6,517 bases of DNA from the NCBI GenBank assembly GCA_030637775.1, contig DAOWFY010000054.1, positions 1-6,517 of the forward strand, given 5' to 3'. The stretch comes from DAOVGU01 sp030637775 [NCBI: bacterium]. GTDB lineage: Bacteria > Ratteibacteria > UBA8468. A program made the position numbers and the translations under genes. The notes under the pieces were generated by a model, which worked only from the letters and a program-made list of their open reading frames with translations, did no database searches and was not told the DNA's origin. Position 1 is the stretch's first letter, and every line of letters begins with the position of its first letter. Positions 190-5,537 of this stretch are shown one piece after another.

Positions 190-600
190 ATGGATAAACG
201 AAAGGAGGAAGCAAGCCGCTGGTTGAAACAGGCAGAGAAGGATTTGAAGACAGCAGGAGATATGATTGAGAAAGAAAATTATAATTGGGCTTGTTTTATT
301 TGCCAGCAGGCAGCAGAAAAAGCTTTGAAGTCTGTCTATATCTCACGTGCAGAAAGTAGCGAACCAGTTCACAGTTTATTCTATCTCCTCCGAGGTGATG
401 CCAGGAAAGGCCTAAAGGGAATTCCTGAACTGCAGAATATGGTAAAGGAAGCACAGGAACTGGATAAAGTCTATATACCTACCCGTTATCCTAACGGAAT
501 ACCTACGGGAATCCCTTCAGAATTCTATACCCAAAAGGATGGAGAGAAATGTCTAAGAATGGCCAGGAAAATAGTTGGCGCAGTGAAAAAGCTCTTTTAG
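190..600 (+). CDS. HEPN-domain protein (likely toxin of a HEPN/MNT module)
   Basis: This 136-residue, all-helical protein matches the PF05168 HEPN pattern from end to end. RWLKQAEKDLKTAGDMIEKENY is helix 1 (residues 10-31), CFICQQAAEKALKSVYI is helix 2 (35-51), HSLFYLL follows at 61-67, LDKVYIPTRYPN is at 91-102, and a last helix rich in Arg and Lys ends the protein. HEPN proteins paired with MNT nucleotidyltransferases are commonly RNase toxins or nucleotide-binding partners. The classical Rx4-6H motif is not present in its usual form: R53 and H61 are seven residues apart, and R99 has no following His, so RNase activity cannot be assumed. The length is normal. ATG 190 is the first usable start, because an ATG at 174 is closed by a stop after two codons. 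The MNT gene starts inside its 3' end, which implies coupled translation. Confidence 0.85.
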   Translation: MDKRKEEASRWLKQAEKDLKTAGDMIEKENYNWACFICQQAAEKALKSVYISRAESSEPVHSLFYLLRGDARKGLKGIPELQNMVKEAQELDKVYIPTRYPNGIPTGIPSEFYTQKDGEKCLRMARKIVGAVKKLF

Positions 601-965
601 ATTACATTGCAAGGTTATCCCGAAAGCTCAAAGAGGTAAAAATTATTCTTTTTGGCTCGCAGGCTAGCGGTGAAAATTGCCGCTACAGCGACTATGACCT
701 CTTAGTCATTTCTGATAGTCTTCCTTCCGATTTCCACAAAAGAATTGACCTTCTCTGGGAAGAAAAACCTTCCTTTATTGATGCGATTGGTCTTAAAGTT
801 GATGAGACTGAAGAAATGATTCACCGCACTTTAATTCTGAAGGCTCTGACTCAAGGAGTTGTCCTTAAAGGAAATGTAGATTTTCTCAAAACACTTGCCC
901 ATAGATATATAAAAAAGGAAGGCCTTGTTCCTACTCCTATTGGCTTCACTCACTATAGGCCTTAA
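549..965 (+). CDS. MNT-type minimal nucleotidyltransferase (likely antitoxin)
   Basis: The pol-beta superfamily signature is complete: FGSQASGENCRYSDYDLLVI at residues 35-54 gives the G36-S37 pair and the metal-binding D48 and D50, with D78 in FIDAIGLKV as a plausible third acid. In studied HEPN/MNT modules the MNT protein neutralises HEPN by transferring AMP to it. The start ATG 549 lies 52 bp inside the HEPN gene in another frame. AAGGA at 535-539 and GGAG at 541-544 provide the ribosome site. The catalytic core ends near GVVLKGN (residue 109). Most proteins of this kind stop about there, whereas this one runs on for about 29 residues to FTHYRP. That tail is encoded antisense to a terminator-like site and to the end of a minus-strand gene remnant, so it may be foreign to the family. 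Confidence 0.85.
   Translation: MSKNGQENSWRSEKALLDYIARLSRKLKEVKIILFGSQASGENCRYSDYDLLVISDSLPSDFHKRIDLLWEEKPSFIDAIGLKVDETEEMIHRTLILKALTQGVVLKGNVDFLKTLAHRYIKKEGLVPTPIGFTHYRP
911..932 (-). terminator. Weak intrinsic terminator candidate for the minus-strand operon
   Basis: On the minus strand AGGAA (932-928) can pair with TTCCT (920-916) around a 7-base loop, and a run of T follows (916-911). It begins 13 bp after the stop of the remnant that closes the minus-strand operon. The stem is only five pairs, so efficiency would be modest. It lies antisense within the MNT reading frame. Confidence 0.35.
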
Positions 966-1080
966 ATAAGGCGCGGTAATAGTGAAGTAGCCTCTCCGGC
1001 TCTGGATTTGCAGGAATTTCCGCAAGACAGAAGCCATTGTACCCGCCTTTCAGTTTATTTGCCCACAATTTCACTGACAT
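946..1080 (-). pseudogene. C-terminal remnant of a xylose-isomerase-like TIM-barrel protein
   Basis: A 44-codon frame from ATG 1080 to TGA 946 reads MSVKLWANKLKGGYNGF, then CLAEIPANPEPERLLHYYRA and LFKAYSE. The pattern (helix)-LKxxGYxGFxxxEIP-x-NPEPExxLxxYRxLF is how sugar phosphate isomerase/epimerase (AP endonuclease 2, xylose-isomerase-like) proteins end: last beta-strand with Glu, then the last helix. Such proteins are about 250-300 residues, so roughly 85-90 percent is missing. A TGA lies directly before the ATG, so this frame does not extend further upstream. The first codons overlap the end of the PD40 gene in another frame. There is no clear ribosome site. It is most likely the tail left after a deletion removed the rest of the last operon gene; a real small protein is the less likely alternative. 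The family call is from motif recall only. Confidence 0.55.
950..985. repeat. Nested inverted repeat between convergent genes
   Basis: TCACTAT (950-956) is the exact reverse complement of ATAGTGA (979-985). Inside it GCCTTA (959-964) pairs with TAAGGC (967-972). Together they allow 13 base pairs with an asymmetric internal loop (2 versus 6 bases). The hairpin spans the stop codon of the MNT gene and the last codons of the minus-strand remnant. No T-run follows on either strand, so it is not a standard intrinsic terminator, but it could protect or stop convergent transcripts. Confidence 0.4.
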
Positions 1081-2194
1081 TCAATACATAAATCTGCCGG
1101 CTTCCTTCATGGGCTGAGTCTATACATATCTTTTTGCCATCACGGCTCCACCGGGGGTGAAGGTCACAACGGATTTCACCGGTAAGTTCCGGAGGAGAAA
1201 AGAAATCTCCCGGATTTATTCTCTTGCCATCTACTACCCGATACAGGATAAGTCTTCGCATTTGTTTAGCATCTGGATAGGTATCGGTAAGGATATACTT
1301 TCTATCCGGGGAGTAACTGCAATGCCCATCAGAGGTCAATACTCCTTCTCCGACAATTTCTTTTTTAGAAGTTTTGTCAGTAAATAGCAAATAATGATTA
1401 TGAAAATATTCCCAGGCTAAAATTTGGGATGAGTTATACCAGTCAAAATGTGATATTTGGTCGGATAGATGAAAGATATCGGAACCATCTACATTCACCG
1501 TAAACATCCTGGTATATAAAAGATTTTTCTTTCTCCACCGATGAAGAAAAAGGAATCGGGAATTGTCTGAGTTGAATAACAAATGGTTGAAATAATGCTT
1601 GCATCCATCCATGCTGTCTTTATGCTTGAACTCCACAATCTGTTTTATAGATATTATTAGTTTATATTCGCCGGTTTCTATATCCATTAAATAAATGCCA
1701 TCATCCGCCGGAGCCAACTCATCTTCCCAGGGGTCAGCCAGTCCAACGTAGCCGTAGCCAGGACGCATCTTATGAATTCGGGCAAAGTTCACACTCAGAG
1801 CAAGTTTCCCGTCATTACTTACGGCATATACCGGCAAAGGTAACTGCCTGCTTTCACCAGTGAATAGATTGCGAATGTGAGAGACAAATCTATCCTTTTC
1901 ACGCGAATTATAAATGATAAGACTCTCAGGGGCGCTCGGCATCCACCTGAGCATCGTCCCCTGCTGCCAATTCCAGGTTTTAGTTTCGGCTATCGGTCTC
2001 CAGCGATTATTATTTTCTGTATCGATTAAGCCAATTACGGCGGTATCGTCAGGTCCAGGAGGATGGTCCATAAATTCAGTCTCCATGCCCAGCATATATC
2101 TACCGGTTTTATCCCAGGGAGATTTATCATAATAGCCGAAAAAGCGGTGCTTTGGACCAGATGTTACCGCACGAGCGATAAACCTATTTTTCAT
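1055..2194 (-). CDS. PD40 beta-propeller protein, oligogalacturonate-lyase-like
   Basis: This 379-residue protein is built of repeated beta-propeller blades with the PD40 signature: AVSNDGKLALSV (124-135), LLFNSDNSRFLFLHRW (205-220), SYSPDRKYILTDT (293-305) and HPRWSRDGKKICID (346-359). It opens with HRFFGYYDKSPWDKTGRYML, typical of a well-conserved family of uncertain function related to PL22 oligogalacturonate lyases. Conserved histidines in HFDW (249), DGHCS (291), DLHP (346) and SAHEG (362) recall the metal-binding site of PL22 enzymes, but I cannot align them here. No signal peptide or membrane segment is visible, so it should be cytoplasmic. It starts 7 bp after the UroD-like gene C stop, without a strong Shine-Dalgarno, so translation probably depends on coupling. 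Its end, IYVLNVSEIVGK, looks like a natural family end. The substrate is unknown; a role with a sugar or uronate polymer fragment is inference from the fold. Confidence 0.8.
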   Translation of the reverse strand: MKNRFIARAVTSGPKHRFFGYYDKSPWDKTGRYMLGMETEFMDHPPGPDDTAVIGLIDTENNNRWRPIAETKTWNWQQGTMLRWMPSAPESLIIYNSREKDRFVSHIRNLFTGESRQLPLPVYAVSNDGKLALSVNFARIHKMRPGYGYVGLADPWEDELAPADDGIYLMDIETGEYKLIISIKQIVEFKHKDSMDGCKHYFNHLLFNSDNSRFLFLHRWRKKNLLYTRMFTVNVDGSDIFHLSDQISHFDWYNSSQILAWEYFHNHYLLFTDKTSKKEIVGEGVLTSDGHCSYSPDRKYILTDTYPDAKQMRRLILYRVVDGKRINPGDFFSPPELTGEIRCDLHPRWSRDGKKICIDSAHEGSRQIYVLNVSEIVGK

Positions 2195-2201
2195 TATTAT
2201 A

Positions 2202-3389
2202 TTACAGCCAACCGGTCAGTTTTGCCAGGAGGCGGGAGTATTCAATATAATTGTCCCAGGAAATATCGGAGGGAACGCCATGGTCACAGGAGGGAATAAA
2301 TCCTCCCTTTTTTAATAATGGTGGTACTACCCGCATCACTTCCTTTTCTATTATCTTACCACCCTTGGCAATGGCACGCTTATCAATCCCTCCGTGGTAA
2401 GCCATTTGCTTACCATAGGTTTTGCGGTATTGCACAATGTCATTTCCGGCGGCCACCTCCATTGGACAACAGCAATTGATACCGGCTTCAATCCAGAGAG
2501 GGATTAATTCGCCAATATAGCCGTCGGAATCCAGATCAATTATGGGACAGCCCCCTCCTCTGTCTTCCCCTCCCTCGAGGGGAGGGGATTGAGGGGAGGG
2601 CGATAGTTGCGAAATTTTCTTAATCTGATTAGCCCAGCGCTTCCAGACCGGCAGGAGAAATCTTCTAACCATCTCTGGCGAAATCATACTATGTTCTTTG
2701 TAAGCCATATCCTCGGAGATACAGATATGGTCAACCGCAACATTTTTCAGGATCGGGGACAATGTTTCCGAGATAAATTTGCTCCAGAAATCAATCATCT
2801 CGGCCACAAAATCTGGCTCTTTAATCATCAGCATACAGAGATTCTCAAATCCGCACCATTCCCGTAATTGCCAGAATGGACCGTTAACTCCGAGACTAAC
2901 AATATCATCTCTATCTTTCAATTTTCGGCATCTCTCCGCAAAATCTTCCGGGAAACGACCCGGTGTCTCAGGATTATATCTTTCCTTCATCCTTTCCCAG
3001 TCTTTTCTATTTTCTACCGGGAATTTGTGCCATTTTCTGGTGACAAAGTCCTTGGCACTGCGGATATAGGTGTAGTCGTATTTGTCCGAAATCTCGGTGA
3101 TTGCTCCCATCCAGTCCTGAACAATGTAATGCCCATCCTTGTGCTCCAGCACCTTCTCCTCAAATTTAGGCATCATCTGGAAGGAAACACCCAAGCTCAC
3201 CTGGGGTTTTGTTTGTTCCGGCTCTATTCCTAAGATTTCAAGAAGAACATCATAGTAGTTTTTCCCTTGGGGAAGGCCCTGTTTATGCCAGGCGGCAAGA
3301 GTAGATTCCCTTGCTCCTCCCGGAGAGAAAGGTATTTTATCCGGCTTTCCAAACAATAATGCCTCTCTAAATCTTTCCCTCGGATTCAT
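2202..3389 (-). CDS. UroD/MtaA-superfamily protein C, carrying an in-frame repeat insert
   Basis: From ATG 3389 the protein has 395 residues and opens MNPRERFREALLFGKPDKIP, the usual start of the uroporphyrinogen decarboxylase/MtaA superfamily. A longer frame to 3503 exists but would read back through the end of gene B, and its extra residues look non-native. The chosen ATG lies 1 bp after the gene B stop (TAA-A-ATG). Family landmarks follow: SLGVNGPFWQLREW (165-178), the MIKEPDFVAEMIDFW module (188-202), ISEDMAYKEHSMISPEMVRRF (224-244), PIIDLDSDG (282-290), YHGGIDKRAI (331-340) and GGFIPSCDHGVPSDISW (362-378). DLDSDG stands where MtaA-type proteins have the zinc-binding HxCG, so classical zinc chemistry is doubtful. 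Residues about 259-280 (ISQLSPSPQSPPLEGGED plus RGGG) interrupt the join IKK-CPIIDLDSDG and come from a palindromic repeat. Without them the length is about 373, normal for the family. Exact reaction unknown; not a heme-pathway HemE. Confidence 0.85.
   Translation of the reverse strand: MNPRERFREALLFGKPDKIPFSPGGARESTLAAWHKQGLPQGKNYYDVLLEILGIEPEQTKPQVSLGVSFQMMPKFEEKVLEHKDGHYIVQDWMGAITEISDKYDYTYIRSAKDFVTRKWHKFPVENRKDWERMKERYNPETPGRFPEDFAERCRKLKDRDDIVSLGVNGPFWQLREWCGFENLCMLMIKEPDFVAEMIDFWSKFISETLSPILKNVAVDHICISEDMAYKEHSMISPEMVRRFLLPVWKRWANQIKKISQLSPSPQSPPLEGGEDRGGGCPIIDLDSDGYIGELIPLWIEAGINCCCPMEVAAGNDIVQYRKTYGKQMAYHGGIDKRAIAKGGKIIEKEVMRVVPPLLKKGGFIPSCDHGVPSDISWDNYIEYSRLLAKLTGWL
2550..2615. repeat. 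Palindromic dispersed repeat inserted in frame in UroD-like gene C
   Basis: A C/T-rich then G/A-rich block is centred on CTCGAG (2574-2579). CCCCTCC (2567-2573) faces GGGGAGGGG (2579-2587), and an outer pair CCCCCTCCTC (2551-2560) and GAGGGGAGGG (2591-2600) gives further imperfect pairing. The composition is wholly unlike the surrounding gene. Read with the gene it gives SPSPQSPPLEGGEDRGGG, a peptide resembling a repeat I recall being scattered through many uncultivated-bacterium genomes. Its span is about 66 bp, a multiple of three, so the frame is kept. The boundaries are estimated from the protein family and may be off by a few codons. Confidence 0.7.
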
Positions 3390-3390
3390 T

Positions 3391-4554
3391 TTAAGTTGTG
3401 TCAGCATCAGGAGATGCTTCCCACTTAAACATTTTATCCTGAACTGAATGCCAGAGAGAGAGGACTGAGGACGGTTCTTCCCCTTCGGGTAAGTTAAAGA
3501 CAAGAAGAAGGGTTCCCTTTTTATGAAGGGGTTTTAAAAGTCGCACAAAGTATTCTTCCGTTCCTTCTTTTTCTTTCCTCGGAAAGGAGCCATAGTAGAT
3601 TTTCCCTTTAGATTCTAATTTTGGCAAGATTTTAGCCGGGTCATAATTTTCCGGATTGCCAAAGTTGATTCCCTTAACCTCGGGTATCCCCAAGAAGATA
3701 TCAAGAAGATGATTCCCTTTACCACAGAAGTGGAGCCAACCCCCTTCAAAAGGAGACAATGCTTTTTTAATATAAGGGGCGACAAATTTCTTAACTAAAT
3801 CGGGAGAGAGGAGGGTGGTTGTATCCTCACAGCAGCGCACTCCACAATTCCCCATAGAGAGAGAGTTGCCATGATACCCTGTATTTAAAGGTTCGTCAAC
3901 TACCTTCTTTAAATATTTTGTTGCCGCAATATAAACATAAGTAGAAAGCTCCATCAAATGGTGGACAAAATCCGGGTCATCATAGAGATCGGTAAATATC
4001 TCGTCCCCCCTGATTAAATGGGCAAGGTCGAAAGGACTCTGGGTATCGGGAAGGTAAACTGCCACCTTCCCCGTCAATCTTTCTTTAAAAAAACCCATAT
4101 ACTCTTTTGCTCGGGATATCAAGCCCTTTTCTGAAATTGGGTTTAAACCCTCTACGGAAAGTTTCTTAATCTCCTCCTTCTTCAAATGCTCTTTTAGCCA
4201 GGGCATCTTATCCGCAAAGACCTCTTCTTCAAGACCAAAAACAGAAGCAAGAAAACCGGTTCCCAGATTAGCTCGTACCGAAGGTAGGGCATCGCCTCCT
4301 GCCCTTACCGTGGACAGTGCTGCCCAGGCCTGTTCATACAACATTTTCTCCTTATCAAAGAACTGTTCCTTGAGGTTATAAGAAGGGGAATTTTTTCTTT
4401 CTAAGATTGAACCCCCTGCGAGCAAAAGAGGAAGATAGTCTAATTTCTCTCCTCTCCAAACGGCTGCCTGCCGTGCCTGACTCTGTAGTGGCGCTTGCTC
4501 TGCTCCTAACAAATTTAAAACTTTATCTAAAGGTACCCGCGAACTTGTATTCAT
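3391..4554 (-). CDS. UroD/MtaA-superfamily protein B
   Basis: This 387-residue protein belongs to the UroD/MtaA superfamily in its middle and C-terminal parts: VAVYLPDTQSPFDLAHLIRG (164-183) with the following DDPDFVHHLMEL module (192-203), GNCGVRCCEDTTTLLSPDLV (235-254) and GGWLHFCGKGNHLLDIFL (271-288). H275 and C277 form the HxC pair that binds zinc in MtaA/CmuA-type methyltransferases. The third ligand, a Cys near the C-terminus, is not visible; LLLVFNLPEGEEP (349-361) stands in that part. Extra cysteines C237, C241 and C242 could serve instead, but that is a guess. The N-terminal 100 residues are divergent from proteins A and C. Its ATG overlaps the gene A stop as ATGA, so the two are translationally coupled, and gene C follows after 1 bp. 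Methyl transfer or a decarboxylase-like reaction is possible; no corrinoid-binding protein is in the window to support the former. Confidence 0.8.
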   Translation of the reverse strand: MNTSSRVPLDKVLNLLGAEQAPLQSQARQAAVWRGEKLDYLPLLLAGGSILERKNSPSYNLKEQFFDKEKMLYEQAWAALSTVRAGGDALPSVRANLGTGFLASVFGLEEEVFADKMPWLKEHLKKEEIKKLSVEGLNPISEKGLISRAKEYMGFFKERLTGKVAVYLPDTQSPFDLAHLIRGDEIFTDLYDDPDFVHHLMELSTYVYIAATKYLKKVVDEPLNTGYHGNSLSMGNCGVRCCEDTTTLLSPDLVKKFVAPYIKKALSPFEGGWLHFCGKGNHLLDIFLGIPEVKGINFGNPENYDPAKILPKLESKGKIYYGSFPRKEKEGTEEYFVRLLKPLHKKGTLLLVFNLPEGEEPSSVLSLWHSVQDKMFKWEASPDADTT

Positions 4555-5537
4555 TTTAGAGGGTAATCTCCATACTTATGAAGAGTCTCCAAGGCGGCCA
4601 TATAGTTATCATATTTACTTCCAAAACATACACTATTACTGGTGCCTGAAATGAATCCTCCGCCAGGAGCTGCGTATTTTAAAGCGTAGAGCACATCTTT
4701 CCTGTTCTCTTCCGGTGTTCCATCGACAAGAGTCTCAATATTTATTCCTCCCCAAAAGGCTATTTTGTTGCCATATTTTTCCTTTAATCTTTTAAGGTCC
4801 ATATCTGCTGTCTTGCAGGCAATAGATTGCCAGCACTCATAGCCAGCCTCAATCAGTATATCCATTATCTTCCAATTATTGCCACAATTATGGCTCATTA
4901 CCCTTACTCCCCTTTGGTGCCCATAATCACTTAATTTTTTCATCCCGGGCAGAAATATTCTTCGGATAGTCTCGGGAGAAACCATCGGACCGTTAGAATC
5001 AGAAAAATCTCCCCCCGGCATAATGGTGTCCACCCCTTCATCGATACAGATTTTTGCTTTGCCATCTTGCCCTTTCTTCTTTATTTTAAATCCTGCATCA
5101 GGTGCATATTCTGATTCAAAAAATTCTCTTACCTCTTCTTTCGACTGAAATCTCCTTATTGAAGGAGTAGATACGCACAATATAGCATCATTTCCGGCAG
5201 AGTATTTAAAGATGCGTCCCCCTTGATCTTCCCATGTTTTTTCGTCTATTTGTTTGATTTTCTCCGGTTGTAAATCCCTGGGAGGAACAAAATGTACCGG
5301 CACCAAATCCTGGTCAAGTTTTTCTATAAGTTCTACTAAATCCTTCTTATAACTTTCTACTACCTCATCTCTTTTGCCAGCCCACAGGGCTAAGGTTTCT
5401 TTCCGCCTATTTCTCCAGTAGGTATCTCTTCCGATTACCTTTTCTGCTGTATCATGGTCTATTCCCCATTCTCCTATCGGAACCCGATCTGGCTCCTTAT
5501 AGTCTAAGGTTTGTAACACTCTCTCTTTTGAATTCAT
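4551..5537 (-). CDS. UroD/MtaA-superfamily protein A, probably with an internal deletion
   Basis: This 328-residue protein starts MNSKERVLQTLDYKEPDRVP, a standard superfamily N-terminus. Its C-terminal half is very typical: GVDTIMPGGDFSDSNGPMVS (168-187), VMSHNCGNNWKIMDILIEAG (213-232), FWGGINIETLVDGTPEE (261-277) and GGGFISGTSNSVCFGSKYDN (292-311). H216 and C218 form the HxC pair, and C304 fits the late third zinc ligand of MtaA-type enzymes. It is thus the only one of the three with a complete candidate metal site. Between about residues 148 and 165 the chain jumps from EYAPDAGF through a Lys-rich stretch to DEGVD. It lacks the module (GxExL...PDFV...) that B and C carry at this place, so about 60 residues seem to be missing in frame. 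No good Shine-Dalgarno precedes ATG 5537, but the stop of an upstream gene tail overlaps it as ATGA. Confidence 0.8.
   Translation of the reverse strand: MNSKERVLQTLDYKEPDRVPIGEWGIDHDTAEKVIGRDTYWRNRRKETLALWAGKRDEVVESYKKDLVELIEKLDQDLVPVHFVPPRDLQPEKIKQIDEKTWEDQGGRIFKYSAGNDAILCVSTPSIRRFQSKEEVREFFESEYAPDAGFKIKKKGQDGKAKICIDEGVDTIMPGGDFSDSNGPMVSPETIRRIFLPGMKKLSDYGHQRGVRVMSHNCGNNWKIMDILIEAGYECWQSIACKTADMDLKRLKEKYGNKIAFWGGINIETLVDGTPEENRKDVLYALKYAAPGGGFISGTSNSVCFGSKYDNYMAALETLHKYGDYPLK

What the first reader, a model, noticed from the sequence alone, without database searches (positions are those of the whole stretch)
2550..2615. Palindromic repeat translated in frame within a UroD-superfamily enzyme
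About 22 Pro/Gly-rich residues split an otherwise family-like protein just before DLDSDG, and the DNA there is a strong palindrome centred on CTCGAG. In-frame palindromic elements inside genes are best known from Rickettsia (RPE). Here the element adds a loop right next to the active-site region and keeps a length divisible by three, so the enzyme may tolerate it.
Basis: partly seen in the sequence, partly recalled or inferred. Interest (0 to 1): 0.7.

Follow-up and report, generated by a model that had tools for sequence, protein, structure and literature searches.

The report
Selfish DNA hairpins translated inside genes
A short, repeated DNA hairpin has spread into many genes of an uncultivated bacterium, including essential ones, and appears to be translated as an extra protein loop; similar elements are known from Rickettsia and other bacteria, but this family looks new and sits inside genes unusually often.

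Summary
Positions 2550-2615 are 22 codons (net +20) read in frame in a URO-D superfamily gene, over a palindrome centred on CTCGAG (2574-2579). Neither refuting outcome occurred. The insert is absent from 27 of 28 named homologues aligned and present in a congener. The draft genome holds other copies: 37 merged model hits, at most 36 places. In samples from three related genomes, 60 of 102 hits lie well inside open frames of at least 150 aa. Hosts include DNA polymerase I, RecJ, topoisomerase I, PriA and a secretion/pilus ATPase. That share is below the random-interval control (0.785) but fits a model in which insertion is random and one in-gene insertion in three survives (0.549, p 0.49). The decorated UroD gene is under purifying selection (dN/dS 0.08). 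AlphaFold2 models the insert as a low-confidence loop; by barrel topology it lies opposite the catalytic face. The family resembles RPE and intragenic REP elements but lacks GTAG/CGTC tags and shows no link to Y1 transposases. No target-site duplication is established and the mobiliser is unknown. Verdict: real, a new family of a known kind.

The parts
2550..2615 (.). In-frame palindromic element: 22 codons read on the minus strand, net +20 residues against homologues without it
2553..2600 (.). Palindrome core (arms 2553-2580 and 2573-2600), centre CTCGAG 2574-2579
2602..2619 (+). AT-rich tail (GATAGTTGCGAAATTTTC) resembling the sequence beside two other copies (GATAATTATAAAGTTTTT, GATAGTTAGGAAGTTTTT); its last bases overlap codons of the host gene
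   Evidence: compared by eye, modest
2205..3389 (-). Host gene: URO-D superfamily protein, 395 aa from the ATG

Best explanation
The stretch is one copy of an interspersed palindromic element, about 55 bp in the core and up to about 85 bp with an AT-rich tail in some copies, that spreads as selfish, non-autonomous DNA. It lands between and inside genes. Copies that keep the frame are translated as Pro/Gly-rich, probably disordered loops and survive because the host protein still works; copies that would break a gene are lost by selection. SHOWN by comparison: many copies, in-frame residence in conserved genes, lineage-limited presence, one filled/empty pair, purifying selection on decorated genes. 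INFERRED: mobility as the cause of spread, loss of frame-breaking copies, near-neutrality of the loop, and translation itself. NOT ESTABLISHED: target-site duplication, exact ends, and the enzyme that moves it.
For: Copies: model R1 gives 65 hits at E up to 1 in the draft genome, 37 after merging strands by hand; two are the ends of one copy split by a contig end, so at most 36 places. One BLAST place (C85:6015, E 0.04) is not among them. Specificity: model R2 has no hit at E up to 0.01 in 18 of 35 genomes. In genes: 27 of 37 hits lie fully in open frames of at least 150 aa; with at least 15 codons of the frame on each side, 23/37, 18/30 and 19/35 in G000, G001, G003, together 60 of 102; random intervals in the same loci give 0.80, 0.80, 0.76. 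The 0.588 observed differs from 0.785 (p 9e-6) but not from the one-in-three expectation 0.549 (p 0.49). Conserved hosts: PolA, RecJ, TopA, PriA, AlaRS, GspE type, EtfA and others. The best PDB match shows a gap at the insert in PolA, TopA, RecJ, GspE type and, less cleanly, EtfA. Recent: UroD insert in 1 of 28 named homologues aligned; PolA insert in G000 and, at the end of a contig, in G001, absent in G002, with an element-like peptide in the same loop in G004. Filled/empty pair: G003:C234 against G000. dN/dS outside the insert, G000 against G001: UroD 0.079, PolA fragment 0.168, TopA 0.208, AlaRS 0.204.
Against: No mobiliser found: Y1_Tnp and element presence are independent in 35 genomes (12/11/5/7, Fisher p 0.72), and no element was seen beside the two Y1_Tnp genes of G000. 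Target-site duplication is not supported: own flanks beat re-paired flanks in the first test (22 of 5000 reach the observed value), but with one row re-anchored it is 43 of 5000 and, without one copy whose repeat equals the element's own tail, 942 of 5000. In AlaRS, G001 has a different 18-residue stretch where G000 has the element, so that site is not a clean pair. The in-gene counts by design see only open frames; gene breakage was looked at in 10 of 42 other sites, by eye. No expression or protein data exist.
Confidence: 0.85

Rival explanations
1. The insert is an ancestral or adaptive loop of this enzyme that happens to be palindromic.
For: It is kept in both members of the genus.
Against: 27 of 28 named homologues aligned lack it; related DNA sits in unrelated genes and between genes; its length differs between the congeners (net 20 against 32 residues, two hairpins in G001).
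Confidence: 0.03
2. The hairpin is skipped in translation (programmed bypassing, as I recall for byp elements of some yeast mitochondria) or removed from the RNA, so the protein carries no loop.
For: It is a hairpin inside coding sequence.
Against: 60 of 102 sampled copies are in frame and free of stops, which skipping would not require; the 10 of 42 other sites examined lie between what look like separate genes (by eye); no Rfam family matches the window. The count of in-frame copies cannot by itself exclude unseen out-of-frame ones.
Confidence: 0.04
3. It is a REP element moved by a RAYT (Y1) transposase.
For: Short interspersed palindromes; G000 has two Y1_Tnp genes.
Against: No GTAG or CGTC in the outer 15 bases of 16 copies; no association with Y1_Tnp across 35 genomes; element-bearing G005, G020 and G028 have no Y1_Tnp hit; no element was seen beside the G000 Y1_Tnp genes.
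Confidence: 0.08

Closest known systems
Rickettsia/Wolbachia palindromic elements (RPE)
   Same: Palindromic, interspersed, in frame inside conserved protein genes; effect neutral or slightly detrimental, and the RPE-bearing guanylate kinase is active (PMC2229807, passages)
   Different: RPEs are given as 105-146 bp in Rickettsia (PMC2229807); here about 55-85 bp, C/G-rich arms, in an uncultivated lineage. Sequences were not compared.
Intragenic GTAG/CGTC REPs (e.g. Opitutus terrae)
   Same: Short palindromes inside genes, often DNA repair genes including DNA polymerase I, and tRNA synthetases; more than half of inserts are dimers or groups encoding 20-30 residues (PMC3733652 section 15, read whole)
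   Different: No GTAG/CGTC tag found, no Y1/RAYT association, and more than half of sampled copies are inside genes, whereas that paper finds most REPs intergenic
MITEs fused in frame (Correia/NEMIS 107 bp, ERIC/RU-1)
   Same: Non-autonomous repeats carried in frame inside genes (PMC2229807, passages)
   Different: Those are tabled with terminal inverted repeats and target-site duplications; neither is established here

Membership tests
Protein-coding palindromic repeats (RPE-like, as a kind) | Repeated palindrome with many copies in one genome | tested here: met
   37 merged hits in G000, at most 36 places
Protein-coding palindromic repeats (RPE-like, as a kind) | In-frame insertion in conserved genes, absent from homologues | tested here: met
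RPE proper | Sequence homology to a named RPE family | not tested
   no RPE sequence was fetched
GTAG/CGTC REP | GTAG or CGTC tag at one end | tested here: not met
   0 of 16 copies, outer 15 bases on each side
GTAG/CGTC REP | Association with a RAYT (Y1_Tnp) gene | tested here: not met
   presence over 35 genomes and flanks of two genes only
MITE | Target-site duplication | tested here: inconclusive
   one search suggested it, one search shows that the signal rests on one copy
URO-D superfamily (host gene) | Pfam PF01208 above cut-off and family fold | tested here: met
   40.7 bits, cut-off 23.9; UroD and methyltransferase structures, best E 7e-10

The most novel reading that the evidence does not exclude
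A family of mobile hairpins, patchy in this class and present in a few genomes outside it, inserts almost at random and is filtered in genes mainly by reading frame. It repeatedly and independently decorates the same essential replication genes, so in-frame selfish DNA is a general source of new protein loops in bacteria beyond Rickettsia, driven by a mobilising enzyme that is not a RAYT.
Probability: 0.3. Interest if true: 0.75.

Novelty: new variant of a known kind. Interest (0 to 1): 0.5.

Why it matters
Protein-coding palindromes are best known from intracellular Rickettsia. Here a family in an uncultivated lineage has more than half of its sampled copies inside open frames, several in genes normally essential. 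The share fits a simple frame filter, which makes the question of how far proteins tolerate random loops measurable from genomes. Some contigs end inside copies (G000 C167/C53, G001 C79), so the repeat may break assemblies.

Tried and rejected
RAYT link: no association. Target-site duplication: first test favourable (15 of the 19 tailed copies, one badly anchored), not upheld on re-test. Rfam and tRNA scans of the window: nothing. PDB sequence search with the UroD protein: no hit at 0.01; the fold search served instead. The AlaRS PDB alignment shown stops at residue 452, before the insert. The M28 site first looked empty in G001 but is shared. Paper searches: in the titles and abstract openings listed I recognised no paper on this family; one search returned nothing. 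The library lacks most subscription journals. From memory I recognise similar Pro/Gly-rich peptides in other bacterial proteins; no call tested that, beyond model hits in 4 of 64 genomes outside the class.

Full report
WHAT IS THERE. The window lies in a draft genome of 1.40 Mb in 177 contigs, 83.5% complete. The gene at 2205-3389 (minus strand) is a URO-D superfamily protein. Its codons on + strand 2550-2615 encode ISQLSPSPQSPPLEGGEDRGGG where homologues have two residues. The DNA is a palindrome centred on CTCGAG; as RNA, 2 of 200 shuffles fold as well.

HOMOLOGUES. One search compared 30 loci from unnamed relatives: the window's own gene, one congener with a longer insert at the same place (G001), one fragment that does not reach the site (L045), and 27 without the insert. 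From the named collection (34 loci) I aligned 28; left out were L051, L064 and L078-L081. Of the 28 only L048 has the insert. The G001 insert holds two hairpins in tandem. dN/dS between the congeners outside the insert is 0.079 over 371 codons; within the 23 aligned insert codons there are about 11 nonsynonymous and 7 synonymous differences, so the insert itself is loosely held.

OTHER COPIES. BLAST gives 17 rows, 13 places with the query itself. Model R1 (6 copies) gives 65 hits at E up to 1, 37 after merging strands; two are ends of one copy. Hits near E 0.1-1 may include chance. Several sequence variants exist, and two copies carry a second palindrome nested inside. Model R2 (16 copies) hits 17 of 35 genomes (own, genus, family, class) at E up to 0.01, with 1 to 136 hits counting both strands, and none in 18. 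At E up to 1e-5 it hits 14 of those 35 and 4 of 64 more distant genomes (stricter filters; Fisher p 6e-5).

INSIDE GENES. In G000, 27 of 37 hits lie in open frames of at least 150 aa. Under the stricter rule 60 of 102 in G000, G001 and G003 do. The G001 and G003 sites (30 and 35) are from the better-scoring rows, not all hits. The two halves of the split copy were counted as two hits outside frames. Random intervals in the same loci average 0.785. If one insertion in three survives in genes, 0.549 is expected against 0.588 observed (p 0.49). This ignores stop codons in some frames, contig ends, and selection on the loop. By eye at least four translated readings occur (LHPHLSPPPLRGRIEERG, SPSPQSSPSRGEEIGGG, TPTYLLPPRGGG, PPPISSPLEGED). 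Of the 42 other hits I looked at the flanking open frames of 10; all ten look like copies between separate genes, judged by eye from the ends of the frames, without a family search.

WHICH GENES. Pfam places copies in PolA, RecJ, TopA, PriA, AlaRS, a GspE/PilB-type ATPase, EtfA, aminotransferases, a glycosyltransferase and others; some frames had no Pfam match. Against Taq polymerase the PolA insert fills query 498-528 opposite six residues, just before the segment with RRIGKTVNF (the name O helix is recalled). TopA, RecJ (a second stretch there also looks like a degraded element), GspE type and, less cleanly, EtfA have gaps in the best PDB match.

HISTORY. PolA: G000 has the insert; a G001 contig ends inside the element at the same downstream junction; G002 lacks it; G004, of another family, has an element-like peptide in the same loop; G001 has two element-like peptides elsewhere in PolA. 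TopA: 3 of 30 loci (G000, G001, G003) carry an element-like insert at one site, and G000 has 30 extra bases there against G001. One filled/empty pair: G003:C234 filled, G000 empty. AlaRS is unclear.

ENDS AND MOBILITY. 19 of 102 hits have a tail like GGAAATTCCTATACAATTAAATT within 50 bases of the centre under a loose match; the same loose pattern occurs 49 times in all in the 286 kb of these loci. A test for direct repeats at the ends looked positive (22 of 5000) but rests on one copy (942 of 5000 without it). Two copies have private 8-9 bp repeats (ATCAAATTA, ATGAATTA). Y1_Tnp genes show no link.

STRUCTURE. AlphaFold2 from 29 sequences gives mean pLDDT 84.4; residues 261-278 are under 50, between helix 246-258 and strand 283-287; 92-97 and 103-118 are also under 50. 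Foldseek finds methyltransferase and UroD structures at E near 1e-9. That an alpha-to-beta connection lies on the non-catalytic face is general knowledge of barrels, not a measurement.

LITERATURE. PMC3733652 (passages, section 15 whole) reports intragenic REPs, many in DNA repair genes. PMC2229807 (passages) reviews RPE and other in-frame repeats. PMC2635572 (passages) lists RPE-bearing proteins in Rickettsia. The finding adds a new family to a known kind.

Noticed in passing
190-965 (+): HEPN domain protein followed by an overlapping nucleotidyltransferase, the layout of a HEPN-MNT toxin-antitoxin pair (function inferred).
   Followed up: no
2205-5537 (-): Three URO-D superfamily genes in a row; the third has an HNCG motif, recalled as a zinc-site motif of cobamide methyltransferases, where the first has DSDG.
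   Followed up: no
1055-2194 (-): A 379-aa protein with no Pfam match at E 0.001.
   Followed up: no
L010 and L012 (G000:C167 and C127): A second palindrome (CCATCCCGTCCACCGGACGGGAG) nested inside two copies of the element, one of them in PolA.
   Followed up: partly
G001 PolA, L252/L166: G001 PolA carries two element-like peptides at other places than the shared one.
   Followed up: partly
G000:C167 end and C53 start; G001:C79 end: Contigs end inside copies of the element, so the repeat may break assemblies.
   Followed up: partly
L022 (G008 UroD homologue): A different 12-residue insert (VVANYSDSPKAG) nearer the C-terminus, not of this element type by eye.
   Followed up: no
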